Assembly (NCBI RefSeq): GCF_014652235.1
Contig: NZ_BMYK01000001.1
Span: 124,001 to 188,000, forward strand
Direction: 5' to 3'
Origin: Pseudorhodoferax aquiterrae
GTDB taxonomy: Bacteria > Pseudomonadota > Gammaproteobacteria > Burkholderiales > Burkholderiaceae_C
Length of the DNA stretch: 64,000 bases
Shown: positions 16,396-64,000 of the stretch, piece after piece
Numbering within the stretch: position 1 is the first letter of the stretch
Layout of the letters: each line of letters starts with the position of its first letter
Position numbers and translations under genes: made by a program
The notes under the pieces: model-generated
What the model saw: the letters and a program-made list of their open reading frames with translations, nothing else
The model's database searches: none
Told to the model about the DNA's origin: nothing

Positions 16396-16420
16396 ACCAG
16401 ATTCCTTTCCTTCAGGGGAA

Positions 16421-16450
16421 ATACTAGCACTCTCCGGGGAGGAGTGCTAA
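16421..16450 (-). promoter_or_regulatory. Candidate rpoH promoter
   Basis: On the minus strand a -35-like ttagca (16450-16445) and a -10-like tagtat (16426-16421) are separated by 18 bases. Each matches the sigma-70 consensus at 4 of 6 positions. Transcription would start near 16414 and leave a leader of about 19 bases with the 'aaggaaagga' site. The spacer is the inner part of the CIRCE operator, the geometry expected for steric repression. Weak hexamers keep the confidence moderate. Confidence 0.5.
16424..16450. promoter_or_regulatory. CIRCE operator (HrcA-binding) upstream of rpoH
   Basis: The inverted repeat ctagcactc-N9-gagtgctaa matches the CIRCE consensus TTAGCACTC-N9-GAGTGCTAA at 17 of 18 arm positions, the single difference being the first base, with the exact 9-base spacer. 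CIRCE is the binding site of the heat-shock repressor HrcA. Its position 29 to 55 bases upstream of the rpoH ATG, across the likely promoter, implies that HrcA controls the heat-shock sigma factor. hrcA itself is not in the window. Confidence 0.9.
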
Positions 16451-16548
16451 AGGCGCCGGTTGCGCCCTTGGTGGGGGTGTGGACAACCCCCTTCCCGATG
16501 GCGGTTGGAGTCCGGTGCGAGCGTCCGGGTTCCGCGCTTAAGCCCGGC

Positions 16549-37924: not shown

Positions 37925-38671
37925 ATGTCCAGACTCAACCTCGCCGAGAACTTCAACCGCTTCTTCACCGTCGCACCGGCGCTGGCGGAGAAGGATAAGA
38001 ACGACGTCTTTTTCATCCGCCACGACGTCTATGCGCGCGAGCTGGGTTTCGAACCGGTTCGGCCGGACCAGCGCGAGACCGATGCCTACGACGTACGGTC
38101 CATGCACTGCCTGATGCGCACGGCCGAAAACTCCCCGCGCCTGGTGGGCTGCGCGCGCGTGATCCTGACCGATCCGGCCGCGCCGGACTCCCTGTTGCCG
38201 TTCGAGAAATCCTGTCGCGATTCCCTGTTCCGCGACAAGATCGATCCGTCGCGCCTGCCGCGCGACCGGATTGCCGAGGTCTCGCGGCTGGCCGTGCTGT
38301 CGGACTTCCGGCGCCGTCGTGGCGAGGACCACAAGGAGGTGGCGCTGGACGTGAGCGACTTCGGCGATGCGCAGCAGCCTCGCTTCCCGTACATCCCGGT
38401 CGGCCTGTACATGGCGTCCGTGCTGATCGCCCAACGCCACAACATCGAATACCTCTTCACCTTGACGGAGCCGCGGCTGGCCGAGCACTTCGCCAAGCTG
38501 GGCGTGCAGATCGTGCCGATCGGGGCGCCGGTGGAGCACCGGGGAACGCGCGTGCCGTCCTTGATCCATGCCGCCACCGTGGAGGCCGGGCTGCGCCTGA
38601 TGATCCGCCCTCTGTGGAAAGCCATCGAGGCACAACTGGACAGCGCCTATGCGCAAGGAGGTCAGGCGTGA
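37925..38671 (+). CDS. Exosortase-system acyltransferase (N-acyl amino acid synthase-like)
   Basis: A 248-residue GNAT-fold protein that looks like the PEP-CTERM/exosortase-associated acyltransferase family, relatives of acyl-homoserine-lactone synthases and N-acyl amino acid synthases. Family-like segments: LAENFNRFFTVAPAL, FFIRHDVYARELGFEP, VGCARVILTDP, and ISEVSRLAVLSDFRRR-like 'IAEVSRLAVLSDFRRR'. It opens the XrtA locus and is read divergently from pilB across 196 bases. A TATGCT box lies at 37892-37897 but has no clear -35. Acyl donor and acceptor are unknown. Confidence 0.8.
   Translation: MSRLNLAENFNRFFTVAPALAEKDKNDVFFIRHDVYARELGFEPVRPDQRETDAYDVRSMHCLMRTAENSPRLVGCARVILTDPAAPDSLLPFEKSCRDSLFRDKIDPSRLPRDRIAEVSRLAVLSDFRRRRGEDHKEVALDVSDFGDAQQPRFPYIPVGLYMASVLIAQRHNIEYLFTLTEPRLAEHFAKLGVQIVPIGAPVEHRGTRVPSLIHAATVEAGLRLMIRPLWKAIEAQLDSAYAQGGQA
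38655..38661 (+). promoter_or_regulatory. Strong ribosome-binding site fixing the epimerase GTG start
   Basis: AAGGAGG, a full Shine-Dalgarno match, ends 6 bases before GTG 38668. It lies in the last codons of the acyltransferase gene and decides the GTG start, which overlaps the acyltransferase stop (GTGA). Confidence 0.85.
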
Positions 38672-39675
38672 AGGTTCTGGTGACGGGGGCGGCGGGCTTC
38701 ATCGGCATGCACGTGACGCAGCGCCTGCTGGCGCGGGGCGACGAGGTCGTGGGTCTGGACAACCTGAACGACTACTACGACGTGTCGCTCAAGGAGAGCC
38801 GCCTCGAACTGTTGCAGCACCAGCCCGGTTTCCGCTTCGTACGCCTGGACGTGGCCGACCGCGAGGGCATCGCATCCCTCTTCGCGCAACACGGTTTCGA
38901 CATGGTCGTCCATCTGGCCGCGCAGGCCGGCGTGCGCTACTCGCTGCGCAACCCGCACGCGTACGTGGACAGCAACCTGGTCGGCTTCGTCAACATGCTG
39001 GAGGGCTGCCGCCACCACCAGGTGCGCCATCTGGTCTATGCCTCAAGTTCCAGCGTGTATGGCGGCAACACGAAGATGCCGTTCGCCGAGGGCGATGCGG
39101 TGGACCATCCCGTCAGCCTGTACGCCGCCACCAAGAAGGCCAACGAATTGATGGCCCATACCTACAGCCATCTCTATGGCTTGCCCACGACGGGCTTGCG
39201 CTTCTTCACCGTGTACGGGCCCTGGGGGCGGCCCGACATGGCGCTGTTCCTGTTCACCAAGGCCATCCTCGAACAGCGGCCCATCGAGGTCTACAACTTC
39301 GGGCAGATGCAACGCGACTTCACCTATGTCGACGATGTGGCCGATGGCGTGGTGCGGGTACTCGACCGGCCAGCCAGCCCGGATGCCACGTTCAATGCCG
39401 CGCGGCCGAATCCGGCTACCAGCCATGCGCCCTACCGGGTCTTCAATATCGGCAACCGCAATCCCGTGCCCTTGCTGGATTTCATCGGCTGCATCGAGCA
39501 GGCGCTGGGCAAGACGGCGGAGAAGCGCCTGCTGCCGCTGCAGGATGGCGATGTGCTCGCGACCTACGCCGACGTGCAGGCCCTGGGCGACTGGGTGGGG
39601 GCGGTGCCGGCAACGCCGCTGGAGCAGGGCATCGCCAGCTTCGTGGCCTGGTACCGCAGCTACTACCGCGTTTGA
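38668..39675 (+). CDS. NAD-dependent epimerase, UDP-glucuronate 4-epimerase type
   Basis: A 335-residue extended SDR. It has the Rossmann motif TGAAGFIG (6-13), the CapI/UDP-glucuronate epimerase hallmark GLDNLNDYYDVSLKESRL, catalytic Ser in YASSSSVYGGN with Tyr-x3-Lys in LYAATKKANELMAH, and TVYGPWGRPDMALFLF. It would make UDP-galacturonate from UDP-glucuronate, giving the polymer an acidic sugar. UDP-glucose dehydrogenase is not visible in the window. A 216-base gap follows before the export gene. Confidence 0.9.
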   Translation: MKVLVTGAAGFIGMHVTQRLLARGDEVVGLDNLNDYYDVSLKESRLELLQHQPGFRFVRLDVADREGIASLFAQHGFDMVVHLAAQAGVRYSLRNPHAYVDSNLVGFVNMLEGCRHHQVRHLVYASSSSVYGGNTKMPFAEGDAVDHPVSLYAATKKANELMAHTYSHLYGLPTTGLRFFTVYGPWGRPDMALFLFTKAILEQRPIEVYNFGQMQRDFTYVDDVADGVVRVLDRPASPDATFNAARPNPATSHAPYRVFNIGNRNPVPLLDFIGCIEQALGKTAEKRLLPLQDGDVLATYADVQALGDWVGAVPATPLEQGIASFVAWYRSYYRV

Positions 39676-39841
39676 GCCGTTCGGGCGGTGCACCCACCGA
39701 CCGGCACCACATTTCCTGGCACTTATGTGCATTTGTCGCGCCAATCGGGCGCGCGGCGCGTAGAGAATCGCAGGCTTCGCCGCTGGTCATGGCCCTTGGC
39801 CCGCTGGCCGGAACGTCGCAATCGTGCAGGGGGAAGTGCGC

Positions 39842-39847
39842 TATAGT
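39842..39847 (+). promoter_or_regulatory. Candidate -10 box upstream of the export operon
   Basis: TATAGT (5 of 6 to TATAAT) lies 44 bases before the TTG of the export gene, in the G+C-poorer end of the 216-base gap 39676-39891. No good -35 is seen at the right spacing. The long tight gene run that follows needs a promoter here. The rest of the gap shows no gene. Confidence 0.4.
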
Positions 39848-39891
39848 GCCCCGCTCGAAGAACTGTTGCCGAATACTGTAGGGGATTTGCC

Positions 39892-40521
39892 TTGAAAATT
39901 CATCACACTGCAATTCGAGGCTTGGTCAGCAAGCTTGGACTTTTCCTCGCGGCGATCATTCTCGTGGGATGTGCTTCCAATAAATATCCTGCGGCGCCAA
40001 CGATGGCAGCATCGGGCGACTATAACTACATTATTGGGCCGGGTGATTCGCTCAATATCATCGTCTGGCGCAATCCTGAATTGTCGATGAATGTGCCGGT
40101 GCGGCCCGATGGCAAGATTTCCACGCCTCTGGTCGATGAATTGGTGGCCCAAGGCAAGAATTCCACCGAAATTGCGCGCGAAATTGAGCAGCTGCTTGGC
40201 AAGTTTGTGCGCGATCCGGTAGTGACCGTGATTGTCACCGCGTTCGTCGGTCCCTACAGCGAGCAGATTCGCGTGGTCGGCGAGGCGGCCAAGCCGCAGT
40301 TCCTGCCTTACAAGCAGAAGATGACGCTGTTGGATGTCATGATTGCCGTCGGCGGCCTGACGGATTTTGCCGACGGCAATGCGGCGACGATCCTGCGCAC
40401 GTCCGAGGGTGGAAAGCAGTATTCCGTGCGTCTGCGTGATCTGGTCAAGCGTGGCGAGATTTCGAACAACGTCGAGATGAAGCCCGGCGATATTCTGGTG
40501 ATTCCGCAAAGCTGGTTCTGA
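39892..40521 (+). CDS. Exosortase-type polysaccharide export lipoprotein (Wza-like)
   Basis: A 209-residue outer-membrane polysaccharide export protein. It has a signal peptide with lipobox LVGCAS, then the Poly_export/SLBB core: YIIGPGDSLNIIVWRNPELSMNVPVRPDGKISTPLVDEL and QIRVVGEAAKPQFLPYKQKMTLLDVMIAVGG, then MKPGDILVIPQSW. Start is TTG with 'ggggatttgcc' upstream. It would form the channel through which the polymer leaves, working with the chain-length protein 3 bases downstream. Sample lines of the gene run 45-58% G+C against about 70% around it, a sign of separate ancestry. Confidence 0.9.
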   Translation: MKIHHTAIRGLVSKLGLFLAAIILVGCASNKYPAAPTMAASGDYNYIIGPGDSLNIIVWRNPELSMNVPVRPDGKISTPLVDELVAQGKNSTEIAREIEQLLGKFVRDPVVTVIVTAFVGPYSEQIRVVGEAAKPQFLPYKQKMTLLDVMIAVGGLTDFADGNAATILRTSEGGKQYSVRLRDLVKRGEISNNVEMKPGDILVIPQSWF

Positions 40522-40524
40522 TCG

Positions 40525-42090: not shown

Positions 42091-42097
42091 GGATGGC

Positions 42098-43003: not shown

Positions 43004-43015
43004 GGCTGGTCGTTG

Positions 43016-44668: not shown

Positions 44669-44671
44669 CTG

Positions 44672-46608: not shown

Positions 46609-46616
46609 ACGTTCCC

Positions 46617-50446: not shown

Positions 50447-50462
50447 AGCGAGGAGCAGCAGC

Positions 50463-52400: not shown

Positions 52401-53638
52401 GCGCTCTGCCGTCCGCAGATGCTGGGCAGGCGCCGCTGCGCATCCTGCTGTTCTCCAGCCTGTTTCCCAGCGCAGCCCGCCCGATCCATGGGATCTTCGT
52501 CGAGACGCGACTGCGCGAACTGCTCAAGACCGGTGCCGTGCAGGCCCGTGTGGTGGCGCCTGTTCCCTGGTTTCCGTCGCAGGGCCAGCGCTTCGGCGAC
52601 TACGCCAAGTTCGCAGCGACGCCCCGCGTGGAAGAGCGCAACGGCATCGAGGTGCACCATCCGCGCTACCTGCTGCTGCCCAAGGTCGGCATGAGCAGTG
52701 CGCCGTTCGCCATGGCGCTCGGGGCGCTGAGGACCATCCGCCGGCTGCAGCGCGAGGGCTTCGACTTTGACCTCATCGACGCCCACTACTACTACCCCGA
52801 TGGCGTCGCCGCCAGCCTGCTGGCGCGCTGGCTGGGCAAGCCCTTCGTCGTCACGGCACGCGGCACCGACCTGAACCTGATCCCCGACTATGCCGTGCCG
52901 CGCCGCCTGATCCAGGCCACGGAACGCGCCGCCAGCGCCTCCATCGGCGTCTGCCAGGCCTTGATGGACCGTCTGCAGGAACTCGGTGGGGACGCAAGCA
53001 AGCTGCACACCCTGCGCAACGGCGTGGATCTGCAGCGTTTCGTGCCCGAACCGCGCGCTGCCGCCCGCGCGCGCCTGCAGCTGCCGGCCGAGGGACGCAT
53101 GCTGCTGTGCGTCGGCCACCTGATCGAACGCAAGGGCCAGTACCTCGCGATCGACGCGTTGGCTGCGCTGCCGGCCGATGTGCGCCTGGTGCTGGCCGGC
53201 GAGGGCCCCGACCGTGCCGCCCTGCAGCGGCAGGCGGAGCGGCTGGGTGTGCGCGAGCGTGTGCACTTCGCCGGCGTGGTGCCGCAAACCGAACTCAAGT
53301 GGTGGTACAGCGCCGCGGACGCCTTGGCCCTGTGTTCCAGCCGCGAAGGCTGGGCCAACGTGCTGTTGGAGGCCATGGCCTGCGGCACGCCCGTGATCGC
53401 CACCGACATCTGGGGCACGCCCGAGGTTGTGAGCCAGCCTGCTGCCGGCGTGTTGATGCCTGAGCGCAGCGGTGCCGGGCTCGTGGCGGCCTGGAACCAG
53501 TTGTTCGCGCAGTTGCCCGACCGCGCCGACACACGCCGCCATGCCGAGACCTTTTCCTGGGACGCGACCACCCAGGGCCAGTTGCAGCTGTTCCGCCAGA
53601 TCCTGACTGCGCGAAAGGCGGGTGCACATGCCGCCTGA
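52397..53638 (+). CDS. GT4 glycosyltransferase
   Basis: A 413-residue GT4 family glycosyltransferase. It opens LRILLFSSLFPSAARPIHGIFVETRLREL, with FDLIDAHYYYPDGVAASLLAR, GVDLQRFVPEP and the donor-site CSSREGWANVLLEAMACGTPVIAT (E-x7-E). The start is a TTG overlapping the amidotransferase stop (TTGA). Specificity is unknown. Confidence 0.88.
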   Translation: MSALPSADAGQAPLRILLFSSLFPSAARPIHGIFVETRLRELLKTGAVQARVVAPVPWFPSQGQRFGDYAKFAATPRVEERNGIEVHHPRYLLLPKVGMSSAPFAMALGALRTIRRLQREGFDFDLIDAHYYYPDGVAASLLARWLGKPFVVTARGTDLNLIPDYAVPRRLIQATERAASASIGVCQALMDRLQELGGDASKLHTLRNGVDLQRFVPEPRAAARARLQLPAEGRMLLCVGHLIERKGQYLAIDALAALPADVRLVLAGEGPDRAALQRQAERLGVRERVHFAGVVPQTELKWWYSAADALALCSSREGWANVLLEAMACGTPVIATDIWGTPEVVSQPAAGVLMPERSGAGLVAAWNQLFAQLPDRADTRRHAETFSWDATTQGQLQLFRQILTARKAGAHAA

Positions 53639-54773
53639 GCGCGCTCCGCTGCACATCGTGCATTTCGTCTACCGCTTCAGCATCGGTGGGCTGGAGAACG
53701 TGATCGTGCAGCTGATCAACCGCCTGCCCGCTGAGCGCTACCGCCATACCGTGGTGTCGCTGACCACCATCGACGACTTCCGCCAGCGCGTGGAGCGGAC
53801 GGACGTGGACTTCATCGCATTGGACAAACCGGTCGGCCACGCAATCCCGCTGTACCGGCGCATCCACGCGCTGCTGCGCCGGCTGCGCCCCCATGTGCTG
53901 CACACCTGCAATCTGGCGGCGCTGGAGATCGTGCCGCTGGGCTGGCTGGCCCGCGTGCCGCTGCGCGTGCATGCCGAACACGGCTGGGACGCCCACGACC
54001 CGCACGGGCATAGCGTGCGCTACCGGCGCCTGCGCCGCGCTTACCGGCCGTTCGTGTCGCACTACGTCAGCGTGTCGCAGGACCTGGACGATTACCTGGC
54101 GCGCGCCATCGGCGTGCCCGCGCGGCGCCGTTCGCTGATTGCCAACGGCGTGGACACGGACCGCTTCGCCCCGGCCGCGGCGCCGGTGACCGCGGTGGCC
54201 GGCTGCCCCTTCGAGCCGGGCCGGCATTGGCTGATCGGCACCGTCGGCCGGCTGCAGACCGTGAAGAACCAGCCGGCCCTGGCCCGGGCCTTCGTGGCAC
54301 TGTTGCAGGCCCGGCCCGACCTGGCCGACCGGGCCCGCCTGGTGTTCGTCGGCGACGGTCCGCTGGCGACCGAGATCGATGCCATCCTGTCCCGGGCCGG
54401 CCTGCGCGATCTGGCCTGGCTGGCCGGTGCGCGCAGCGACGTGCCGCAGGTGCTGCGCATGCTGGACTGCTTCGTGCTGCCCTCGCTGACCGAAGGCACC
54501 TCATGCACGCTGCAGGAGGCCATGGCCTGCGGCCTGCCCATCGTCGCCACCGCGGTCGGTGGCAATCCCGAGGTCGTGGCCGACGGTGCGACGGGCAGCC
54601 TGGTGCCCTCAGAGGACGACGCAGCCATGGCCCGGGCGCTGGCCGCCTACGCCGACGATGCCGTGCTGGCCCAGCGGCACGGGCAGGCGGCGCGCGACCA
54701 GGCGCAGGCCCGCTACGGCCTGGAGGCCATGGTGCGGCGTTACGACACCTTGTTCTCGGGCGCCGGTGCCTGA
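53628..54773 (+). CDS. Glycosyltransferase of the XrtA stp2 type
   Basis: A 381-residue GT4 glycosyltransferase. The opening IVHFVYRFSIGGLENVIVQLINRLP is typical of the exosortase-linked stp2 family. Donor motif: LPSLTEGTSCTLQEAMACGLPIVAT. The ATG at 53628 overlaps the previous gene by 11 bases; a GTG at 53622 would add two residues. Linkage specificity is not readable. Confidence 0.88.
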   Translation: MPPERAPLHIVHFVYRFSIGGLENVIVQLINRLPAERYRHTVVSLTTIDDFRQRVERTDVDFIALDKPVGHAIPLYRRIHALLRRLRPHVLHTCNLAALEIVPLGWLARVPLRVHAEHGWDAHDPHGHSVRYRRLRRAYRPFVSHYVSVSQDLDDYLARAIGVPARRRSLIANGVDTDRFAPAAAPVTAVAGCPFEPGRHWLIGTVGRLQTVKNQPALARAFVALLQARPDLADRARLVFVGDGPLATEIDAILSRAGLRDLAWLAGARSDVPQVLRMLDCFVLPSLTEGTSCTLQEAMACGLPIVATAVGGNPEVVADGATGSLVPSEDDAAMARALAAYADDAVLAQRHGQAARDQAQARYGLEAMVRRYDTLFSGAGA

Positions 54774-54782
54774 GTTTTTTCC

Positions 54783-56000: not shown

Positions 56001-57136
56001 AAGTCTTGATCGTGTTCGGAACCCGCCCCGAGGCCATCAAGATGGCACCGGTGGTCAAGGGCTTGCAGGCTGCCGCCGACCGGCTGCAGACCGTGGTCTG
56101 CGTGACCGCCCAGCACCGCGAGATGCTCGATCAGGTGCTGCGCCTGTTCGAGATCGTGCCGCAGCACGACCTGAACGTGATGAAGCCCAACCAGGACCTG
56201 TACGACGTGACGGGCAACATCCTGGCGGGCCTCAAGGGCGTGCTGGCGGCCGAGAAACCCGACCTCGTGCTCGTGCACGGCGACACCACCACCACGCTGG
56301 CCACCAGCCTGGCGGCCTACTACGCGCGCGCTGCGGTCGGCCATGTGGAAGCGGGCTTGCGCACGGGCAACAAGTACGCGCCCTTCCCGGAAGAGATCAA
56401 CCGCAAGGTGACGGGTGCCGTGGCCGACCTGCACTTCGCCCCGACCGCGATGTCGCGCGACAACCTGCTGCGCGAGGGCGTGGAGGCCGCCAGCATCTTC
56501 GTCACGGGCAACACGGTGGTCGACGCGTTGCTGACCGTGGTGGACAAGCTGCGCACCGACGCGGCCCTCAAACAGCAGATGCAGGAGCGCTTCAGCTTCC
56601 TCGATCCTTCGCGCCGGCTGATCCTCGTGACCGGCCACCGCCGCGAGAACTTCGGCGAGGGCTTCGAGAACATCTGCCATGCGCTGGCCGACATCGCGGC
56701 CGGCCAGCCGGACGTGGAGGTCCTCTACCCGGTGCACATGAACCCGAACGTGCGCAAGCCGGTGCAGGAGATCCTGGCCGCGCGCGGCCTGTCCAACGTG
56801 CACCTGATCGAGCCGGTCGACTACCTGCCCTTCGTGCACCTGATGGACCGGGCCTACCTGATCATCACCGACTCCGGTGGCGTGCAGGAGGAAGCGCCTT
56901 CGCTGGGCAAGCCGGTGCTGGTCATGCGCGACATCACCGAGCGGCCGGAAGCCGTGCAGGCCGGCACCGTGCGACTGGTGGGCACCGCGCGAGAGGCCAT
57001 CGTGCGCGAAACCCTGCACCTGCTGAACGATGCCGAGGCCTACGCGCGCATGTCGCGGGCCCACAATCCCTACGGCGACGGCCAGGCCGTCGGCCGCATC
57101 CTTGAAGCTGTCCTGTCCTGGAAAGAGAGCCGCTGA
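55997..57136 (+). CDS. wecB: UDP-N-acetylglucosamine 2-epimerase
   Basis: A 379-residue non-hydrolysing epimerase (UDP-GlcNAc to UDP-ManNAc). Marks: [88 protein letters not shown]. Starts with GTG overlapping the preceding stop (GTGA). Coupled to wecC by a TGATG overlap, so the two make UDP-ManNAcA. Confidence 0.96.
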
Positions 57137-58356
57137 TGGCCCACGTACTGCAGAAAATCATCGTCATGGGCCTGGGCTACATCGGCCTGCCGACCGCCTC
57201 CATGCTGGCCACCAAGGGCCACAGCGTGCTGGGGGTGGACGTCAACAAGGCCGCGGTGGACACCATCAACTCCGGCCGCATTCACATCATCGAGCCCGAC
57301 CTGGACGTGCTGGTGCGCTCGGCCGTCAACAGCGGCAACCTCAAGGCCTCGCTGACGCCGGAGGAGGGCGACACTTTCATCATCGCCGTGCCCACGCCGT
57401 TCAAGGAAGAGAACGGCAATCCCAAGGCGCCGGACCTGTCGTATGTGGAAGCCGCGACCAAGGCCATCACGCCCTTCCTGCGCGAAGGCAACCTCGTGAT
57501 CTTGGAGTCCACCTCGCCGGTGGGAACGACCGAGTTCATCGAGAAGACCATCGTCGAGGCGCGTCCCGAATTGCAGGGCAAGGTGCATGCCGCGCACTGC
57601 CCCGAGCGCGTGCTGCCCGGCCACATCCTGCGCGAACTGGTCGACAACGACCGCATCATCGGTGGCACCAGCAAGGCGGCCGTGGCCAAGGCGCGGGAGC
57701 TCTACAAGACCTTCTGCAACGGCGCCATCCTGGAGACCGACAGCCGCACGGCCGAGCTGTCCAAGCTCGTGGAGAACTCCTTCCGCGACGTGAACATCGC
57801 CTTCGCCAACGAGCTCTCGCTGGTCTGCGACCACCTGGGCGTCAACGTATGGGAAACCATCGCGCTGGCCAACCGTCACCCGCGCGTGAACATCCTGCAG
57901 CCCGGCCCTGGTGTGGGCGGCCACTGCATCGCGGTCGACCCCTGGTTCATCGTCTCGAGCGCACCCGTGCAGTCGCGCTTGATCAAGACCGCGCGCGAGG
58001 TCAACGACGCCAAGCCACACTGGGTCATCGAGCGCGTCAAGGCCAAGGCCGAGCGCTTCAAGTCGCCCGTGATCGGCTGCCTGGGCCTGACCTTCAAGGC
58101 CAACATCGACGATTTGCGCGAGTCGCCCTCGCTGGACATCGTGCGCGACCTGATCGCCGAGAACGTGGGCCAGGTGCTGGCCTGCGATCCCAATGTCGCG
58201 GCCGACAAGATCGACATTCCGCTGCACGACCTCAAACACGTCATGAAGAATGCCGACATCCTGCTGCTGCTGGTCGACCACGAGGAATTCAAGTCGATCG
58301 ACAGGGAAGCGATCAAGGACAAGATCGTGATCGATACGCGCGGGATCTGGCGCTGA
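57136..58356 (+). CDS. wecC: UDP-N-acetyl-D-mannosamine dehydrogenase
   Basis: A 406-residue NAD-dependent UDP-sugar dehydrogenase. Rossmann motif IVMGLGYIGLPTASMLA, LVILESTSPVGTTEFI, and the catalytic Cys in LQPGPGVGGHCIAVDPWF with GLTFKANIDDLRESPSL. WecC-type oxidation gives UDP-ManNAcA; related WbpA or TuaD-like substrates cannot be excluded, but the coupled wecB favours ManNAc. It completes the nucleotide-sugar pair. Confidence 0.95.
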   Translation: MAHVLQKIIVMGLGYIGLPTASMLATKGHSVLGVDVNKAAVDTINSGRIHIIEPDLDVLVRSAVNSGNLKASLTPEEGDTFIIAVPTPFKEENGNPKAPDLSYVEAATKAITPFLREGNLVILESTSPVGTTEFIEKTIVEARPELQGKVHAAHCPERVLPGHILRELVDNDRIIGGTSKAAVAKARELYKTFCNGAILETDSRTAELSKLVENSFRDVNIAFANELSLVCDHLGVNVWETIALANRHPRVNILQPGPGVGGHCIAVDPWFIVSSAPVQSRLIKTAREVNDAKPHWVIERVKAKAERFKSPVIGCLGLTFKANIDDLRESPSLDIVRDLIAENVGQVLACDPNVAADKIDIPLHDLKHVMKNADILLLLVDHEEFKSIDREAIKDKIVIDTRGIWR

Positions 58357-58375
58357 GGGGCAGAGGGGCACCCGC

Positions 58376-58555
58376 ATGGAAGCCGCGCTGTTCACGCTGG
58401 ATGTCATCTTCCTGGTGCTGCTGATCCTGGCCGTCCGACGCGCGGACCGAAAGCCGGCGCAAGCGCGTGATCTGGGGGTGCTGTCCTACTTGAACGCCAA
58501 GACGGACGATATCCAACGCGGTCTGCGAGCGCGGAAGGGCGCCGACGATGCGTGA
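58376..58555 (+). CDS. 59-residue single-span membrane protein
   Basis: A 59-residue protein that begins MEAALFTLDVIFLVLLILAVRRADRK, a membrane helix at about 5-20 with a basic cytosolic side, then a charged tail (PAQARDLGVLSYLNAKTDDIQRGLRARKGADDA). It starts 19 bases after wecC with 'cagaggggc' ahead of its ATG, and its stop overlaps the O-ligase-like gene by 8 bases. Length and overlap suggest a real coupled gene. No family recognised. Possibly an accessory of the ligase. Confidence 0.65.
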   Translation: MEAALFTLDVIFLVLLILAVRRADRKPAQARDLGVLSYLNAKTDDIQRGLRARKGADDA

Positions 58556-59915
58556 CCTCATGATGCTGGGGATGATGATGGTCATCGTCCCCATCGCGTT
58601 GTCCAATGCCTTCGCGGCCTACCTGGTCTGGGGGTGGACCTCGGTCATTGCTGTCCCCTACTACATGTGGGGGTTCATGGGGTCGTTGCGCTACAACCTG
58701 TTCTTTGCGCTCGTCACGCTGCTCTTGCTGGTGGTGGGCAAGAGCGTCGACAAGAGTCCATTCCGACTCAACAGGACCTCCGTGCTGATTCTGCTGTTCG
58801 TGGCCCACGTCACGGTCAGCGCGGTGCTGGCGGATGCCAGCGCGCGCAACAATTTTTCGATCTATACGGACCTGCTGAAGTCCATCACGTACTGCCTCGT
58901 GATGTTCTTCTTCGTGAACTCGCGCCTGCGCCTGCACGCGATGCTGATCGCGATCGCACTGGGGCTGGGCTTCCATGGCTTGGCGGAAGGCCTGAAGACC
59001 CTGGTCACGGCGGGCGGCCACAAGGTCATCGGCTTGCCGGGCACCAAGATGAGCGACAACAACCATTTCGGTGTCGCCCTCGTGATGGCCTTGCCCATCC
59101 TGCTGTACCTGTACCAGTACTCCAAGGTCAGGATGGTGCGCTTGGGCTTTCTCGGTGTTCTGCTGGCCACTGTGCTTGCCGTCATCGGCTCCAGGTCGCG
59201 TGGAGCCTTTCTCGCCATGGCAATGCTGGCCTTCATGCTGATGCTGACCTCGCGGCGCAAAGGGATGGCGGCCCTCTTCGTGACGCTGGGTGTGGCACTG
59301 GTGCTCGTGCTGAGTCCCGCGTCCTGGTTCGAGCGCATCGAAACCATCGGCAGCGCAGACCAGGACGCTTCATTCATGGGACGGGTGGAGGCCTGGAACG
59401 TCGCGACGGCGCTGGCGCTACAGAATCCGGTCTTCGGAACGGGCTTCCACGCGATGCAGTCCGGCGATGTCTGGTTCGCAGTGCGGCCATCCGATGGATT
59501 GATGGGGGGGCTGCTTGGATCGGCCAATCTGTCGACCCACGCGCGTGCTGCGCACAGCATCTATTTCGAGGTCTTGGGAGACCACGGCTTTGTAGGGCTC
59601 TTGCTGTTCCTCGCCATCATGGGCAATGCCTTTGTCACGGCCTTGCAGATCCGTCGGATGACAGCTTTCCGGAGTGACCTGTTGTGGGCCCGGGACATGT
59701 CCGACACCTTGGCCTTGTCGTGCTTTGCGTTCACGGTGGGCGGCGCGGGTGTCAGCCTGGCCTATTTCGAGACGTACTATGTGGTCGTCTGCCTGCTCGA
59801 GGCGCTGCGCCAGTACGTGCTCGCGCAAGTGCGCCCAGCGTCAGGACAACTGCCTGCGCAGGTGCGCGCGGCGTCCGCATCGGCCCAGGCGAACAAGCGC
59901 CTTCAGGCGCCGTAG
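58548..59915 (+). CDS. O-antigen ligase-like (exosortase A-associated O-glycosylation ligase)
   Basis: A 455-residue membrane protein with about ten helices, of the Wzy/O-ligase superfamily and most like the probable O-glycosylation ligase of exosortase A loci. The long periplasmic loop has RVEAWNVATALALQNPVFGTGFHAMQ and HAAHSIYFEVLGDHGFVGLLLF with conserved Gly and His. It may polymerise or transfer the glycan. G+C is lower than neighbours (about 58% in one line). Confidence 0.85.
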   Translation: MRDLMMLGMMMVIVPIALSNAFAAYLVWGWTSVIAVPYYMWGFMGSLRYNLFFALVTLLLLVVGKSVDKSPFRLNRTSVLILLFVAHVTVSAVLADASARNNFSIYTDLLKSITYCLVMFFFVNSRLRLHAMLIAIALGLGFHGLAEGLKTLVTAGGHKVIGLPGTKMSDNNHFGVALVMALPILLYLYQYSKVRMVRLGFLGVLLATVLAVIGSRSRGAFLAMAMLAFMLMLTSRRKGMAALFVTLGVALVLVLSPASWFERIETIGSADQDASFMGRVEAWNVATALALQNPVFGTGFHAMQSGDVWFAVRPSDGLMGGLLGSANLSTHARAAHSIYFEVLGDHGFVGLLLFLAIMGNAFVTALQIRRMTAFRSDLLWARDMSDTLALSCFAFTVGGAGVSLAYFETYYVVVCLLEALRQYVLAQVRPASGQLPAQVRAASASAQANKRLQAP

Positions 59916-59937
59916 CAGCAACGACGGCGCGCACCGT

Positions 59938-62148
59938 CTACCGGGCGTCGAGCAGATGCTGGTGGACCCACGACGTGATGCGCGCGCAGCGTGCCCCCGA
60001 GAACTGCCGGTCAATCAGATCGCGCCCATGTTGCTGGGCGGCCGCGTCAGGTGCAGCTGCCCGTTCGATCGCCAGTTCCAGTTTGGCGGCAAGAGAGGCG
60101 GCGGAACCAGGCTTGAAGAGAAAACCGGTCGTCCCGTCTTCGGTCACTTCGCAGGCGGCCCCAAACGCCGGTCCAACGAACAGGCAGCCGTGCGCAAGCG
60201 CTTCCAGCATCACGAGGCCAAGCGGCTCCGGCGAAGTCGACGCCGATACACAGATGTCGATCTGCGGCAACAAGGCTTGCAGGTCGTTGCGGCGTCCCAA
60301 AAAACGGACCCGGTCCTGCAGCCCCAAGGCCTGTGCTTGCGCATGCAGCCCGCGCGCATAGCTCGCGTCGCCACGCTCCGGCGTGTCTCCGACAACCAGT
60401 GCGATGACGGGGGCCTGGGAAGAGGACTTGACGGCAGCGAGGGCGTTGAGAAAAAGGTCCTGCCCCTTCCACGCCACCAGCATGCCGACCATTGCGATAA
60501 GGATGGTGTTCTCGGGAAGTCCGAGTTCGGAGCGCAGATCGGGCGCTGCTCCCGACGTCGGGAGGACTTCGAGATCGATCCCGTCGTAGATTTGCCGTAT
60601 CCGTTCAGCCGGTACCCCGCTGCGCAGCAACTCGCCAGTCAGCCACCGCGACACCGGAATGAAGGTGGCTGGTCCGTTGCGCATCATCGGCATCGCCAGG
60701 CTGTCGCTCACCGACCCGCGTACGTGCTGGATGTAGGGAATGCCAAGCAACCTGGCCGCCATCATGGCTTCGCGGTTGGCGCTGGGATCGTTGTTGCCGT
60801 GAACGATCGCAGGCCGCACCTTCAGCAGGTGCGTGACAAGGCGCAGGAAGTACGGAAGCCGGTTGGTCAGGTCGTCGGCCCGCCCCAGTGCGAACAACAC
60901 TCCCTTGGCAAGCAGGCCCGAGCCCAGACGCGCCCTGACCCGGCGTGCCATGGCACGGTAGTCGACAGCGCGATCCGGGATCACCACCGATTGCTCTGCG
61001 GTTCCGGTGAAATCGCCGACCGGCATGTTGGTCACCACGTGGTAGCGGTATCCCGTCGCTCTGGAGTTGCTCAGCAGCGTCTGCAGAGCCACCACGGCGC
61101 CGCCGAATCCCGCCCCGTTCTCCACGAAGGCGACGAGCGGGCGGGTATCGCGGCCGCCCGGCTTTGTTGCACTCCGGGTCGGCAGTGCGCCCGGCGCCAC
61201 CATCACGCGACGTGACTTGGTCATTAGGTTGCGCGCCATCTGCACGCCCATCTGCACGTCCGACGGGCCCCAGGGAGTGAACCTCGGGATCTCGAACACG
61301 GACGTCTGCCGGTCGGCAGCACCCCCTTCGGTGGTGACCGCGTGGGTGTAACCGGCTGCCTGAACCATGCGCACATGCTCGGCCCGGAAATCCACGCCGG
61401 GACGGCCGTTGGGATAGGCGAACGCCTTGACCGGAGCATGCAGCAAGTGTTCGAGCACTTCGCGCGCCCCGCCGATTTCGCGCATGGCATCGTCGTCTTC
61501 GCAGAGGGAAAGAATGGGATGGCGTACCGTGTGGGCCCCCACGCCGAAGCCCTGTGCATGCAGATCGCGCAACTGCTCCACGGTCATGCGGCAAAGCTGG
61601 TCCTGCCGCGTCCCGGCTGCGGCTTCCAAAGCATCCAGCAGTTTGTCGCGCACGTTCAACGGCTGGTACTTGAGCAACTGCTCCACCATGCTCAAGGCCC
61701 GACGCCTTTCCTGGAGCTGACCCAGCGGCACCTGGGGCAGGCCGAAACCGGGCAGGTCGAGCACCGGGCCTGGATGGTTGGCCAATGCATGCGCCACGCG
61801 CTCATGCCACATGCGCTCGTTGTCGAACTGTCCTGTCGTGATGAAGAACGTGGCGTGCAGGTTGCGCCGGCGCAGCAGGGGCACGGCGCCGCTCAACCAA
61901 CTGTCATAGCCATCGTCGAACGTGATGCAGGCGGCTCTGCGAGGCAGTCGCCCCGCCTTCAGGGCCGTGGCGGCCTCATCCAGCGGCACGACGTTGAAGT
62001 GCTCGTCGACGTAGTCGATCACCCGTTCGAACGATGCAAGCGTCAGGTCATTGACCAGTTCCGTGGTCGAGCGCGGTACCGCATGAAACAGCAGGACCGA
62101 CAGTTTTTCCTGTGCAAGAATCTTGAGTGCCAAGTCGCCGAAATGCAT
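59938..62148 (-). CDS. Polysaccharide deacetylase-glycosyltransferase fusion
   Basis: A 736-residue two-domain protein. Residues 1-310 are a NodB-fold deacetylase: LSVLLFHAVP, CITFDDGYDSWL (76-85 region with the D-D metal/base pair), ATFFITTGQF, GAHTVRHPILS (His206, His210) and FAYPNGRP. A linker (311-335) leads to a GT4 glycosyltransferase (336-736) with VENGAGFGGAVVALQTLLS, HGNNDPSANREAMMAARLLGIPYIQHVRGS, GMLVAWKGQDLF and SPEPLGLVMLEALAHGCLFVG. One protein could both add and deacetylate a sugar. It is convergent with the O-ligase gene and divergent from the pyruvyl transferase gene. The ATG at 62148 begins the deacetylase domain. Confidence 0.88.
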   Translation of the reverse strand: MHFGDLALKILAQEKLSVLLFHAVPRSTTELVNDLTLASFERVIDYVDEHFNVVPLDEAATALKAGRLPRRAACITFDDGYDSWLSGAVPLLRRRNLHATFFITTGQFDNERMWHERVAHALANHPGPVLDLPGFGLPQVPLGQLQERRRALSMVEQLLKYQPLNVRDKLLDALEAAAGTRQDQLCRMTVEQLRDLHAQGFGVGAHTVRHPILSLCEDDDAMREIGGAREVLEHLLHAPVKAFAYPNGRPGVDFRAEHVRMVQAAGYTHAVTTEGGAADRQTSVFEIPRFTPWGPSDVQMGVQMARNLMTKSRRVMVAPGALPTRSATKPGGRDTRPLVAFVENGAGFGGAVVALQTLLSNSRATGYRYHVVTNMPVGDFTGTAEQSVVIPDRAVDYRAMARRVRARLGSGLLAKGVLFALGRADDLTNRLPYFLRLVTHLLKVRPAIVHGNNDPSANREAMMAARLLGIPYIQHVRGSVSDSLAMPMMRNGPATFIPVSRWLTGELLRSGVPAERIRQIYDGIDLEVLPTSGAAPDLRSELGLPENTILIAMVGMLVAWKGQDLFLNALAAVKSSSQAPVIALVVGDTPERGDASYARGLHAQAQALGLQDRVRFLGRRNDLQALLPQIDICVSASTSPEPLGLVMLEALAHGCLFVGPAFGAACEVTEDGTTGFLFKPGSAASLAAKLELAIERAAAPDAAAQQHGRDLIDRQFSGARCARITSWVHQHLLDAR

Positions 62149-62176
62149 TTTCTTCCCTTTGCCCGGGGCGAGGATA

Positions 62177-62200
62177 GCATGCGCAGCCGTGGCTGCATGC
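62177..62200. repeat. Inverted repeat in the divergent gap ahead of the pyruvyl transferase
   Basis: Arms gcatgcgcagcc and ggctgcatgc flank a central gt; they pair over 10 bases with a 2-base bulge. It sits in the 84-base gap between the divergent deacetylase-glycosyltransferase and pyruvyl transferase genes, 29 bases from the former's ATG. It could be an operator or a hairpin. No T tract follows, so it is not a terminator. Confidence 0.45.
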
Positions 62201-62232
62201 CGATGTTTCTTTTGACCATTTGCGAGGAATAA

Positions 62233-63144
62233 TTGCTGAAGCTGTTTTACTACCGGGATGGACGCGGTAATTTTGGCGACGATCTGAATCCATGGATCTG
62301 GTATTCCTTGTATCCCGGGATGTTCGATGATCAGGCGCCGGACCACATGCTTGGTATTGGAACGCTGATCAATGACCGAGCGCCGCGCAACGGCAGAATC
62401 TGGGTTTGCGGCTCAGGGGCTGGATACCATGGTGCTGCGCCCGTGAGCGAGAACTGGAATTTTGTGTTCGTGCGCGGCCCGAGAACCGCAGCCCGAATGC
62501 AGTTGCCGCTCGACAAGGCAATCACAGATCCCGCAATTCTCGTCGCCGATTTGCTCGACCGGCGACCGCGGCAGGCATCGTCGATCTGCTACATGCCGCA
62601 CCACGACAGCATTTGGCGCGCCGATTGGCGTGGAATATGCAAGAAGTTGGGCCTGGTTTATCTCGATCCGGCGGATGATATTCACGAAACCATTTTCAAG
62701 ATGTGCCGGAGCAAGTTTGTGATTGCAGAGGCCATGCATGCTGCCATCGTTGCCGATGCGTTGCGGGTGCCTTGGGTTCCGGTCAAGGCGTACTCCCACA
62801 TCCTCGATTTTAAGTGGCAGGATTGGGCGGAATCCCTGGCCCTGGATTACCAGCCGGAGACATTGCCGGAGGTTTGGGATGTCGAGCAGTTCCGCAGTCG
62901 GGGGGAAATCTTCAAGAGCAATGTGAAGAAACGGCTCATGCGGATGGGAATGGACGCGTCGAATTGGACGCCGCCGTTGCCGGACAACAATGCCAGCCGG
63001 GCCATGGGCCCTTTGCTCGAGCGTCTGGCGGATTGTCGCGACAGGGCTTCCGTCGTGCTGAGTTCTGACCACGCCCACCACGAAGCCAGGCGGCGCATTC
63101 TTGCAACGATGGATGCGTTTGCGGCGAGCCGTGATGCCGCCTGA
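62233..63144 (+). CDS. ExoV-like polysaccharide pyruvyl transferase
   Basis: A 303-residue protein of the polysaccharide pyruvyl transferase family, closest in style to ExoV: LFYYRDGRGNFGDDLNPWIWYSL at the start, IWVCGSGAGYHG, FVRGPRTAARMQLPLDKAITDPAIL, and FVIAEAMHAAIVADALRVPWVPVKA with the conserved E-A-M-H-A. It would add a pyruvate ketal to the polymer, making it more acidic. Start is TTG with a 'gaggaa' ribosome-binding site. Codon use is less G+C-rich (about 52% in one sampled line), pointing to a separate origin. Confidence 0.87.
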   Translation: MLKLFYYRDGRGNFGDDLNPWIWYSLYPGMFDDQAPDHMLGIGTLINDRAPRNGRIWVCGSGAGYHGAAPVSENWNFVFVRGPRTAARMQLPLDKAITDPAILVADLLDRRPRQASSICYMPHHDSIWRADWRGICKKLGLVYLDPADDIHETIFKMCRSKFVIAEAMHAAIVADALRVPWVPVKAYSHILDFKWQDWAESLALDYQPETLPEVWDVEQFRSRGEIFKSNVKKRLMRMGMDASNWTPPLPDNNASRAMGPLLERLADCRDRASVVLSSDHAHHEARRRILATMDAFAASRDAA

Positions 63145-63156
63145 ACGTGGCCGCCG

Positions 63157-64000
63157 ATGCAGGTTCGGCTAATGCCGCCCTCCGCCGCACCGGAACGGAT
63201 GGTGCCGCGACCCGGCGGGCCGCGACTGGAGGTTCTGGCCGATTTTTCCCAGATGCAGGCGTTCCTCGCGCTGGCCTCGCCGGAGGCGGGGCCGAATGCC
63301 GAGGTGTTCCAGACCGTCGAGTGGCTGCGGCATCTGGCGCAGCATGGTTTCGAGGCAGCGCCCCGCTGTTGGCTGGTCGGACTGGTGTTCGGCCCGCAGC
63401 AGCCCCGGTGTGCGTTGGCGCTGTCCTTGGCCGACGGCCGAGTGCGTGCGCTGAGCAACTACTACAGCAGCGTGTTCGGCCCGGTGGGCGAGAGCGAAGC
63501 GTCGGTCGCTTGGACCTTGCTGGCCGAAGCCCTGCACGGTCATTCCTCCGGCGCTGTCGTTGATCTCCAGCCGCTCGATGCCCAAGCGCCTTGGGTGGCG
63601 TCCATGGTGGCGGCGCTGCGCGTGGCGGGCTACCGGGTCGATCGCTATTTCTGCTTCGGCAACTGGTACCTGCCCGTGGTGCACGCCAGCTTCGCCGAGT
63701 ACCTGCGCGAGCGGCCGTCCCCCTTGCGCAACAGCATCGAGCGTGGCCGTCGGCGACTGCAGCGGGCGGGCCATGGAGTGCGCATTCAGGCCGATGCCGG
63801 ACCGGGACTGGAGGGGGAGATCGCTGCCTTCGAGAGCGTTTACCGGCGCAGCTGGAAAGCCCCCGAGCCGTGTCCCACGTTCATGCCGGGACTGATCCGC
63901 CTGGCAGCCGCGCAGGGCTGGCTGCGCCTCGGCGTGTTGCGGGTGCAGGGCGAGCCGGTCGCCGCCCAGCTCTGGCTGGTCCATGCCGGCAAGGCGAACA
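63157..64000 (+). CDS. BioF2/CelD-like GNAT acetyltransferase, 3' end missing
   Basis: The first 281 residues of a protein that runs off the window. It has the double-GNAT pattern of the CelD/BioF2-like family: FQTVEWLRHLAQHGFEAAPRCWLVGLV, a basic FAEYLRERPSPLRNSIERGRRRLQRAG, EGEIAAFESVYRRSWKAPEPCP and LRLGVLRVQGEPVAAQLWLVHAGKA. It may acylate or modify sugars of the polymer. ATG 63157 lies 13 bases after the pyruvyl transferase stop. Confidence 0.8.
   Translation, partial: MQVRLMPPSAAPERMVPRPGGPRLEVLADFSQMQAFLALASPEAGPNAEVFQTVEWLRHLAQHGFEAAPRCWLVGLVFGPQQPRCALALSLADGRVRALSNYYSSVFGPVGESEASVAWTLLAEALHGHSSGAVVDLQPLDAQAPWVASMVAALRVAGYRVDRYFCFGNWYLPVVHASFAEYLRERPSPLRNSIERGRRRLQRAGHGVRIQADAGPGLEGEIAAFESVYRRSWKAPEPCPTFMPGLIRLAAAQGWLRLGVLRVQGEPVAAQLWLVHAGKAN

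What the first reader, a model, noticed from the sequence alone, without database searches (positions are those of the whole stretch)
37925..64000. Exosortase A (XrtA) exopolysaccharide locus with three extra glycan-tailoring activities
The locus carries the expected XrtA core (export protein, Wzz, kinase, barrel, ATPase, deacetylase, FemAB-like, xrtA, amidotransferase, several glycosyltransferases, O-ligase) plus a pyruvyl transferase, a second deacetylase fused to a glycosyltransferase, and a second GNAT-like gene. Together they predict an acidic, pyruvylated and perhaps amidated polymer. Established: the XrtA core gene set in other bacteria. Inference: the chemistry of the product.
Basis: partly seen in the sequence, partly recalled or inferred. 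Interest (0 to 1): 0.75.

Follow-up and report, generated by a model that had tools for sequence, protein, structure and literature searches.

The report
Bacterial slime locus with aminoacyl-tailoring genes
This is a real gene cluster for making and exporting a surface slime linked to a protein-sorting enzyme; it is mostly of a known type, but its genes suggest that amine-bearing groups are fixed onto the slime's sugars, which may matter for how proteins are attached to it.

Summary
Confirmed: window 37925-64000 is an exosortase A (XrtA)/PEP-CTERM exopolysaccharide locus in a Pseudorhodoferax-type genome. Of 30 locus genes scanned, 18 pass XrtA-system NCBIfam cut-offs, four of them beyond 64000, where the locus goes on with hydrolases 1 and 2, carrier protein, ligase, PLP decarboxylase, flippase and a second pyruvyl transferase.

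"Three extra activities" holds only in part. A second deacetylase lies in 35 of 54 XrtA neighbourhoods, a homologue of the second GNAT in 19 (lower bound); only pyruvyl transferases are rare (6 of 54). Deacetylase-GT fusion occurs in 8 of 35.

New reading: the second "GNAT" folds like FemX-type aminoacyl transferases and sits beside the module genes in 10 of 16 XrtA loci and 3 of 5 places without XrtA. The decarboxylase is closest among solved structures to BtrK, which acts on carrier-bound glutamate. I infer that an amino acid is activated, carried, decarboxylated and put on a glycan amine. A 2020 paper (PMC7468200, passages) already suggested an amino-acid-modified sugar for exosortase systems; the carrier module is my addition. 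Chemistry is untested; the deacetylase link is mixed.

The parts
37925..38671 (+). PEP-CTERM/exosortase-associated acyltransferase (TIGR03694, GNAT fold); left edge of the locus
   Evidence: 232.7 bits against cut-off 111.95; found in 6 of 54 neighbourhoods, all in the genus
38668..39675 (+). SDR sugar epimerase or dehydratase, perhaps a UDP-uronate 4-epimerase (function inferred)
   Evidence: best PDB 5u4q (titled dTDP-glucose 4,6-dehydratase) 506 bits, then 6zl6/6zla (titled epimerase) 170 bits (that 6zla is a UDP-glucuronate 4-epimerase is recalled); no NCBIfam equivalog cut-off reached among the best 25 shown
39892..40521 (+). outer-membrane export protein TIGR03027
   Evidence: 235.5 bits
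40525..42090 (+). chain-length determinant TIGR03007
   Evidence: 532.9 bits
42098..43003 (+). tyrosine autokinase TIGR03018
   Evidence: 279.3 bits
43013..44668 (+). outer-membrane protein TIGR03016
   Evidence: 311.8 bits
44672..45754 (+). XrtA-associated ATPase TIGR03015
   Evidence: 417.1 bits
45751..46608 (+). first polysaccharide deacetylase TIGR03006
   Evidence: 468.2 bits
46617..47654 (+). FemAB-family protein TIGR03019
   Evidence: 523.7 bits; PF13480 and PF02388
47655..48887 (+). glycosyltransferase TIGR03087
   Evidence: 549.2 bits
48884..50446 (+). exosortase A (XrtA) with C-terminal EpsI domain; Cys192, Arg237, His258
   Evidence: TIGR03109 358.1 bits, TIGR02914 120 bits; motif positions
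50463..52400 (+). asparagine-synthase-like amidotransferase TIGR03108
   Evidence: 1028.1 bits
52436..53638 (+). GT4 glycosyltransferase
   Evidence: closest NCBIfam model TuaC, 190.6 bits, below its cut-off
53622..54773 (+). glycosyltransferase TIGR03088
   Evidence: 493.2 bits
54783..56000 (+). glycosyltransferase TIGR04063
   Evidence: 647.7 bits
55997..57136 (+). wecB, UDP-GlcNAc 2-epimerase
   Evidence: TIGR00236 520.9 bits; homologue of 60% identity or more in 9 of 54 neighbourhoods
57136..58356 (+). wecC, UDP-ManNAc dehydrogenase
   Evidence: NF008286 590.7 bits; homologue of 60% identity or more in 9 of 54
58548..59915 (+). O-ligase/polymerase-like protein TIGR03097
   Evidence: 335.9 bits; Wzy_C
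59938..62148 (-). NodB-type deacetylase (TFDD, HTVRH) fused to a GT4 glycosyltransferase; no sign of a signal peptide or membrane span
   Evidence: PF01522 and PF00534; motifs; homologous deacetylase in 35 of 54 neighbourhoods; hydropathy scan
62233..63144 (+). polysaccharide pyruvyl transferase 1 (PF04230, diverged subgroup)
63157..64000 (+). FemX-fold tandem-GNAT transferase (FemAB2), ends at 64275. Beyond the window, window-equivalent coordinates: hyd1 64286-65140(-), hyd2 65137-66000(-), carrier protein 65997-66254(-), ligase 66316-67908, PLP decarboxylase 67949-69154, flippase 69377-70876, GT 70879-72213, FrhB-like 72210-73592, second PF04230 protein 73589-74893
   Evidence: PF13480 93.6 bits; fold; downstream genes

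Best explanation
It is an XrtA/PEP-CTERM exopolysaccharide locus, probably working by a lipid-linked (Wzx/Wzy-like) route: sugars are added in the cytoplasm, flipped by the flippase at 69377, joined by the O-ligase/polymerase-like protein, and exported through the Wzz/kinase/TIGR03027 set. SHOWN by sequence: the core genes, one XrtA, 30 PEP-CTERM C-termini in the genome, and the starter transferase EpsB2 beside PrsK on another contig. INFERRED: the glycan contains ManNAcA (wecBC), may be amidated (amidotransferase) and pyruvylated (two PF04230 proteins); the fused enzyme adds and de-N-acetylates an amino sugar in the cytoplasm; and a carrier module (AMP-forming ligase, carrier protein, BtrK-like decarboxylase, a Cys alpha/beta-hydrolase with its catalytically degenerate partner, FemX-fold transferase) makes a decarboxylated aminoacyl group and fixes it on a glycan amine.
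For: Core families over cut-off; XrtA Cys/Arg/His; 30 PEP-CTERM matches; EpsB2 and PrsK in tandem. Core genes recur in 48-53 of 54 neighbourhoods at identity thresholds set gene by gene. TIGR03099 over cut-off goes with XrtA: 46 both, 5 XrtA only, 5 decarboxylase only, 144 neither, of 200 genomes. Decarboxylase: best PDB is BtrK, 249 bits against 161 for the best DAP decarboxylase, and it lacks the CE[ST]GD and NDL.RP stretches of three LysA; a separate LysA is in the genome. Ligase: the FD of the A4 region, aligned to NRPS adenylation domains, is kept in 19 of 20 ligase matches. Carrier: PF00550. hyd1 Cys in 16 of 16, hyd2 Arg at that place in 14 of 14. FemAB2: pLDDT 91, the first nine Foldseek hits are FemX and the streptothricin enzymes Sbb17/Sba18. 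FemAB2 within 6 kb of the module in 10 of 16 XrtA loci and 3 of 5 without XrtA. On S. meliloti pSymB ligase, decarboxylase, a carrier-like stretch, GT and deacetylase follow one another with no exosortase on that plasmid.
Against: No chemistry is known for this strain. The decarboxylase tree does not join BtrK to the XrtA decarboxylases: it puts BtrK with LysA, without support (0.366). The LgrA 249 bits are a sum over two domains, 112 and 126 bits each; the best single domain is 3wvn with 214. FemX uses aminoacyl-tRNA (recalled), so use of a carrier is a leap. FemAB2 is missing in 6 of 16 XrtA loci with a module gene in view. The five genomes with TIGR03099 but no XrtA show no homologue of the second deacetylase in the stretches read, and 5 O-ligase loci without it still have the decarboxylase, so deacetylation and the module are separable. 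Folding PPT1 gave no PDB match at E <= 0.001. The S. meliloti carrier match falls in two frames, so that gene's integrity is not shown.
Confidence: 0.6

Rival explanations
1. An ordinary XrtA locus with a lineage-specific tailoring slot: pyruvylation and ManNAcA vary from strain to strain, and the ligase-carrier-decarboxylase set makes a free small molecule (a signal or polyamine) that never touches the glycan.
For: Content between O-ligase and hyd1 differs within the six genomes of the genus; ligase and decarboxylase can stand without XrtA; TIGR03694 at 37925 resembles N-acyl amino acid synthases (PF21926).
Against: Both plasmid copies read lie among glycosyltransferases, a deacetylase and an O-antigen-ligase-family gene, and a FemX-fold transferase often travels with the module.
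Confidence: 0.25
2. FemAB2 and FemAB (TIGR03019) take amino acids from aminoacyl-tRNA and aminoacylate a sugar amine, as FemX does, and the carrier module serves another step.
For: The first nine fold hits are FemX and aminoacyl-tRNA-dependent peptide synthases (tRNA use of FemX recalled). In P. gingivalis VimA, which matches TIGR03019, sets the amino acid on the linking sugar, presumably after removal of an acetyl group (passages of PMC7468200).
Against: Physical linkage of FemAB2 to ligase, hyd1, hyd2 and carrier, also in places without XrtA.
Confidence: 0.3
3. One reading: three extra activities (pyruvyl transfer, a second deacetylation, a second N-acetylation) set this locus apart and give an acidic, pyruvylated, perhaps amidated polymer.
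For: The genes are there; wecBC homologues of 60% identity or more in only 9 of 54 and pyruvyl transferases in only 6 of 54 neighbourhoods.
Against: The second deacetylase is in 35 of 54, the GNAT-like gene in 19 of 54, and its fold is that of aminoacyl transferases. Many other loci hold sugar-dehydrogenase matches of about 26-35% to wecC, so acidic sugars need not be special either.
Confidence: 0.25
4. PPT1 is not a pyruvyl transferase but a diverged PF04230 protein with another donor or no activity.
For: Only 29.3 bits to PF04230 over profile positions 84-276; no NCBIfam match; no PDB fold match at E <= 0.001, best partial hits to glycosyltransferases and UDP-sugar 2-epimerases.
Against: 8 of 8 members match PF04230; profile comparison to two PF04230 proteins of the own genome 98.8%, E 1.4e-16, and to a set with E. 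coli WcaK 82.7%, E 9.5e-6; many invariant residues.
Confidence: 0.2

Closest known systems
XrtA/PEP-CTERM exopolysaccharide loci of floc-forming Betaproteobacteria (Aquincola tertiaricarbonis RN12, Zoogloea resiniphila MMB)
   Same: Same kind of system and same separate epsB2-prsK unit (passages of PMC9850573; here). G183, whose contig C2 has the 3,831,859 bases of RN12 chromosome 1 (the identification is my inference), carries the core, the second deacetylase and FemAB2.
   Different: G183 has no wecBC homologue of 60% identity, pyruvyl transferase or deacetylase-GT fusion in the 40 kb read. The Zoogloea locus itself was not read.
Type IX secretion linking sugar, Wbp/Vim pathway (PMC7468200, passages)
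   Same: AsnB-like amidotransferase, TIGR03019-like transferase, deacetylase and a sorting enzyme; that paper already suggests an amino-acid-modified sugar as exosortase acceptor and notes TIGR03108 in PEP-CTERM loci.
   Different: There a di-N-acetylated uronic acid of the Wbp pathway; here wecB and wecC, plus a carrier-protein decarboxylation module that the passages read do not mention.
Butirosin side-chain pathway (BtrI carrier, BtrK decarboxylase)
   Same: Carrier protein plus alanine-racemase-fold decarboxylase closest to BtrK among solved structures; BtrK turns BtrI-S-glutamate into BtrI-S-GABA (passages of PMC7857480).
   Different: The ligase here is an AMP-forming (ANL) enzyme; BtrJ is, from recall, an ATP-grasp enzyme. 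BtrK placement in the tree is unresolved.
FemX and the streptothricin peptide synthases Sbb17/Sba18
   Same: FemAB2 fold, TM-score 0.62-0.72 by target length over the first nine hits.
   Different: 14-16% identity; donor here unknown; no PDB match by sequence.
Colanic acid pyruvyl transferase WcaK and ExoV-like PF04230 proteins
   Same: PF04230 membership.
   Different: PPT1 is a short, diverged subgroup; the ExoV label is recalled, not tested.

Membership tests
XrtA/PEP-CTERM exopolysaccharide system | exosortase A over the TIGR03109 cut-off with Cys, Arg, His | tested here: met
   358 bits against 208; Cys192, Arg237, His258
XrtA/PEP-CTERM exopolysaccharide system | XrtA-associated export, kinase, ATPase, deacetylase, FemAB, amidotransferase families | tested here: met
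XrtA/PEP-CTERM exopolysaccharide system | PEP-CTERM proteins in the genome | tested here: met
   30 matches over cut-off; none inside the window
XrtA/PEP-CTERM exopolysaccharide system | PrsK regulator and EpsB2 starter transferase | tested here: met
   808 and 515 bits, adjacent on contig C5; PrsR and PrsT not tested
XrtA/PEP-CTERM exopolysaccharide system | sorting of PEP-CTERM proteins by XrtA | not testable with these tools
   needs genetics and mass spectrometry
Polysaccharide pyruvyl transferase (PF04230) | profile match over gathering score | tested here: met
   PPT1 29.3 against 25.3; PPT2 61.7
Polysaccharide pyruvyl transferase (PF04230) | fold like solved pyruvyl transferases | tested here: inconclusive
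   PPT1: no PDB match at E <= 0.001, and no pyruvyl transferase among the 50 rows shown; PPT2 not folded
BtrI/BtrK-type carrier-bound aminoacyl decarboxylation | decarboxylase closer to BtrK than to DAP decarboxylase | tested here: inconclusive
   similarity and motifs yes, tree no: BtrK falls with LysA, unsupported (0.366)
BtrI/BtrK-type carrier-bound aminoacyl decarboxylation | dedicated carrier protein beside it | tested here: met
   PF00550 34.9 bits, Ser39 in DSM
BtrI/BtrK-type carrier-bound aminoacyl decarboxylation | BtrJ-type ligase | tested here: not met
   ligase is AMP-forming TIGR03098; class of BtrJ recalled. Hence 'works like', not 'is'.
FemX-type aminoacyl transferase | tandem-GNAT FemX fold | tested here: met
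FemX-type aminoacyl transferase | aminoacyl-tRNA as donor | not testable with these tools
   needs an assay
T9SS-like amino-acid-modified linking sugar | amidotransferase, TIGR03019-like transferase and deacetylase together | tested here: met
T9SS-like amino-acid-modified linking sugar | sorted protein amide-bonded to the sugar's amino acid | not testable with these tools
   needs mass spectrometry of PEP-CTERM protein C-termini

The most novel reading that the evidence does not exclude
XrtA loci carry a carrier-protein route that activates an amino acid, decarboxylates it while bound to the carrier, and fixes the resulting amine-bearing acyl group on a de-N-acetylated, perhaps amidated, sugar of the exopolysaccharide. 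That amine is the acceptor to which exosortase A couples PEP-CTERM proteins. The 'exosortase A-associated' ligase, decarboxylase and hydrolases would then be the makers of the unknown exosortase acceptor.
Probability: 0.15. Interest if true: 0.9.

Novelty: new variant of a known kind. Interest (0 to 1): 0.5.

Why it matters
The compound to which exosortases attach their proteins is called unidentified in PMC7468200 (2020, passages), and NCBIfam lists TIGR03098/03099/03100/03101 as hypothetical equivalogs. Reading these genes as a carrier-bound aminoacylation module, with a FemX-fold transferase, gives a chemical prediction that mass spectrometry can test in floc-forming bacteria used in sewage treatment. 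It extends the 2020 proposal from FemAB, deacetylase and amidotransferase to the distal half of the locus.

Tried and rejected
Rejected: that the second deacetylase and second GNAT are special to this locus. Rejected: that the locus ends near 64000. Rejected: that the decarboxylase is the housekeeping LysA.

Led nowhere: PDB search by sequence with PPT1 (one meaningless hit) and with FemAB2 (none); Foldseek of PPT1 (nothing at E <= 0.001); papers with exosortase and pyruvyl (none); Pseudorhodoferax with exopolysaccharide (4 papers, listing only, none looked on topic); exosortase with decarboxylase and acyl carrier protein (one paper, listing only, not opened); 'exosortase A system-associated' with acyl-CoA ligase or exopolysaccharide (33 papers, 10 listed, that phrase in none of the 10). 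So 'not found in print', for pyruvyl transferases in exosortase loci and for the carrier-module reading, rests in one open-access library.

Limits: neighbourhoods were 40 kb, and 10 of 54 were cut to under 36 kb by contig ends, so absences downstream (FemAB2, hyd1, ligase) are lower bounds; G004, for one, has FemAB2 just outside its 40 kb. Genomes are related, so the Fisher values overstate independence. One sample genome (G199) matched at XrtA only, at 40% identity. The spread of the second deacetylase was judged by tblastn at 100 bits or more and 60% cover. Counts used identity thresholds that I set per gene. The 35/0/5/4 table fed to Fisher was put together by hand. For A4, 17 of the 22 homologous stretches were aligned with the own protein.

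Full report
WHAT IS THERE. The window is contig C1 positions 124001-188000 of a 7.11 Mb genome in 94 contigs. Relatives carrying a PPT1 of 89-90% identity are named Pseudorhodoferax (sp. Leaf265 and P. soli DSM 21634). Reading frames were chosen by codon-position GC and then checked by profile search. NCBIfam placed nine of the first ten genes over XrtA-system cut-offs, five of the next ten (XrtA itself, amidotransferase, two glycosyltransferases, O-ligase), with wecB and UDP-ManNAc dehydrogenase over their own cut-offs, and four of the last ten: 18 of 30. XrtA has the EpsI domain fused at its C-terminus. The genes before 37925 are pilB, a pilC-type gene, coaE and zapD.

BEYOND THE WINDOW. The second GNAT gene ends at 64275. 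It is followed by hyd1 (TIGR03100), hyd2 (TIGR03101) and a carrier protein on the minus strand, then ligase (TIGR03098) and decarboxylase (TIGR03099), all but the carrier over their cut-offs. Next come a flippase, a GT, an FrhB-like gene and a second PF04230 protein at 61.7 bits. After these lie an 894-residue protein with a PcRGLX-like domain (28.2 bits) and a MBOAT gene (112 bits) beside a GDSL-like gene below the cut-off (23.9 bits). The carrier has PF00550 (34.9 bits).

SYSTEM IN THE GENOME. One XrtA, 30 PEP-CTERM C-termini over cut-off, EpsB2 and PrsK adjacent on contig C5. PMC9850573 (passages) reports the same epsB2-prsK arrangement in Aquincola RN12, and floc-deficient mutants with insertions in these genes.

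IS THE COMBINATION UNUSUAL? Of 200 genomes drawn from the family, 51 have XrtA over the cut-off, and 6 of 6 in the genus do. I read up to 40 kb around XrtA in all 51 (own included) plus three more of the genus, 54 in all, of which 10 were cut below 36 kb. The core stands in much the same order: export protein 49, ATPase 51, first deacetylase 53, FemAB 51, amidotransferase 48 of 54. The second deacetylase is in 35 of 54, usually next to the O-ligase. FemAB2 is in 19, wecB and wecC (60% identity or more) in 9, the SDR in 8, TIGR03694 in 6, PPT1 in 4, and any pyruvyl transferase in 6 of 54 (own, G004, G075, G078, G200, G201); two pyruvyl transferases in one locus occur only in own and G201. Many loci without close wecBC hold weaker wecC matches, about 26-35%, so other acidic sugars may be made there. 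G075, another genus, has PPT1, the second deacetylase and FemAB2 together in its XrtA locus. In the wider sample, PF04230 occurs somewhere in 21 of 51 XrtA genomes and 29 of 149 others; 5 of 67 PF04230 rows lie within 30 kb of an XrtA and 17 near an exosortase below the XrtA cut-off (lower bounds). So pyruvyl transferases beside exosortases are not new as such.

THE FUSION. The deacetylase half keeps TFDD and HTVRH. Of 35 homologues, 8 run in frame into a GT domain: five with the same GT as here (own, G200, G201, G069, G195) and three with another (G114, G154, G028). One more, G011, has a long open tail without a GT match. None of the 35 shows a signal peptide or a clear membrane span by a simple hydropathy scan with starts that I guessed; the highest 19-residue mean is 1.80 against 2.3-2.8 in three membrane proteins of the locus. 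I infer cytoplasmic deacetylation coupled to sugar transfer. This is not shown.

PYRUVYL TRANSFERASE 1. The subgroup keeps NxGDDLN and EAMHxAI. 8 of 8 members match PF04230. Profile comparison gives E 1.4e-16 with two ExoV-like proteins of the own genome (the ExoV label is recalled) and E 9.5e-6 with a set of five holding E. coli WcaK. The model is good (pLDDT 84.6), but Foldseek found nothing at E <= 0.001.

THE CARRIER MODULE. TIGR03099 over cut-off and XrtA go together in 46 genomes, with 5 and 5 exceptions and 144 with neither; the family name already says so, and the count agrees. The decarboxylase is closest in the PDB to BtrK (249 bits; next a DAP decarboxylase with 161). Identity is 37% to BtrK and 28-32% to three LysA/DAP decarboxylases. 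Where the three LysA have CE[ST]GD, the eight XrtA-locus decarboxylases that cover the place, two plasmid ones and BtrK have CTPxD; 6knh shares this. In another stretch the LysA have NDL.RP, while these have GGx[HN]H[HQ]x[AS]; three XrtA-locus sequences did not reach either place. PMC7857480 (section 8 read) says that an aspartate next to the catalytic cysteine contacts the substrate's side-chain amine in DAP decarboxylase and others, and that this loop varies with substrate; in the LysA sequences here that residue is Glu. The tree puts BtrK with LysA and not with the XrtA enzymes, without support (0.366). The ligase aligns with NRPS adenylation domains (best single domain 3wvn, 214 bits) and keeps the FD of the A4 region in 19 of 20 matches, the exception being a 35% paralogue. 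That this Asp binds the amino group of the substrate is recalled. hyd1 has a Cys at the nucleophile elbow in 16 of 16 and hyd2 an Arg in 14 of 14, so hyd2 looks catalytically degenerate.

FEMAB2. With 18 aligned sequences the model has pLDDT 91.3. The first nine PDB hits are FemX of Weissella and the streptothricin peptide synthases Sbb17 and Sba18; MprF and aPGS structures and further FemX/FemA follow, and acetyl-CoA-type tandem GNATs come lower. FemAB2 lies within 6 kb of hyd1, hyd2, ligase or decarboxylase in 10 of 16 XrtA loci where one of these is in view, and in 3 of 5 genomes that have TIGR03099 but no XrtA over the cut-off.

OUTSIDE XRTA. On Sinorhizobium meliloti pSymB the ligase, decarboxylase, a carrier-like stretch (matched in two frames, E 3.5e-9, not in the gene table), a GT and a deacetylase follow each other; on an Aureimonas plasmid the carrier, ligase and decarboxylase lie in a polysaccharide locus with a deacetylase. 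The ligases and decarboxylases pass the TIGR03098 and TIGR03099 cut-offs. Neither plasmid has an exosortase by PF09721 (the rest of these genomes was not searched). So the module looks glycan-linked and not tied to an exosortase. Among 44 XrtA neighbourhoods with an O-ligase match, the second deacetylase and decarboxylase are both present in 35, decarboxylase alone in 5, neither in 4, deacetylase alone in 0 (p 0.0009; counts put together, relatedness ignored). Against this, none of the five XrtA-less genomes shows that deacetylase in the stretch read.

COMPARISON. PMC7468200 (passages) found that type IX cargo proteins are amide-bonded to an N-seryl glucuronamide or N-glycyl mannuronic acid. 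Deletion of an AsnB-like gene (wbpS) removed the amide; VimA, which matches TIGR03019, presumably transfers the amino acid after the putative deacetylase VimE. It suggests that exosortase systems may use a like sugar. The present locus has amidotransferase, TIGR03019, deacetylases and ManNAcA genes, and adds the carrier module and FemAB2. A further lead: an 'exosortase associated' amidotransferase was hit 12 times in a Sphingomonas colony-morphology screen (PMC11340318, passages).

VERDICT. A real XrtA locus of known kind with a lineage-specific slot (ManNAcA, deacetylase-GT fusion, pyruvyl transferases). The title's 'three extra activities' shrink to one. The larger interest lies in the aminoacylation reading of the distal genes, which is inference from similarity, motifs, fold and neighbourhood.

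Noticed in passing
family sample of 200 genomes: 17 of 67 PF04230 rows lie within 30 kb of an exosortase that scores below the XrtA cut-off, 15 of them within 10 kb; pyruvylation may be common in other exosortase loci (weaker exosortase rows left out).
   Followed up: partly
window-equivalent 74876-77560 (-), beyond the window: 894-residue protein with a PcRGLX-like RIFT barrel domain (28.2 bits) beside the second pyruvyl transferase; its C-terminal part is found in G200 and G201; perhaps a lyase for the polymer.
   Followed up: partly
window-equivalent 78576-81106 (-), beyond the window: MBOAT gene and a GDSL-like gene (below the Pfam cut-off) in tandem, the usual look of a polysaccharide O-acetylation pair.
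   Followed up: no
contig C5 of the own genome, 41492-44943 and 1-17267: EpsB2 and PrsK in tandem; the same contig holds another polysaccharide region with a PF04230 protein, weak flippase and export-protein matches and a sugar transferase.
   Followed up: partly
L003:9137-10000 (-): hyd2 (TIGR03101) has Arg in place of the catalytic nucleophile in 14 of 14 sequences: a likely pseudoenzyme named hydrolase.
   Followed up: partly
L159, S. meliloti pSymB 12394-17175: Genes annotated as 'exosortase A system-associated' on a plasmid without exosortase; 24 of the 25 best plasmid matches listed are Sinorhizobium or Rhizobium. A protein without Pfam match sits before the ligase in both plasmid loci.
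   Followed up: partly
G154 and G028: Two TIGR03099 decarboxylases over the cut-off in each of these two genomes of one genus.
   Followed up: no
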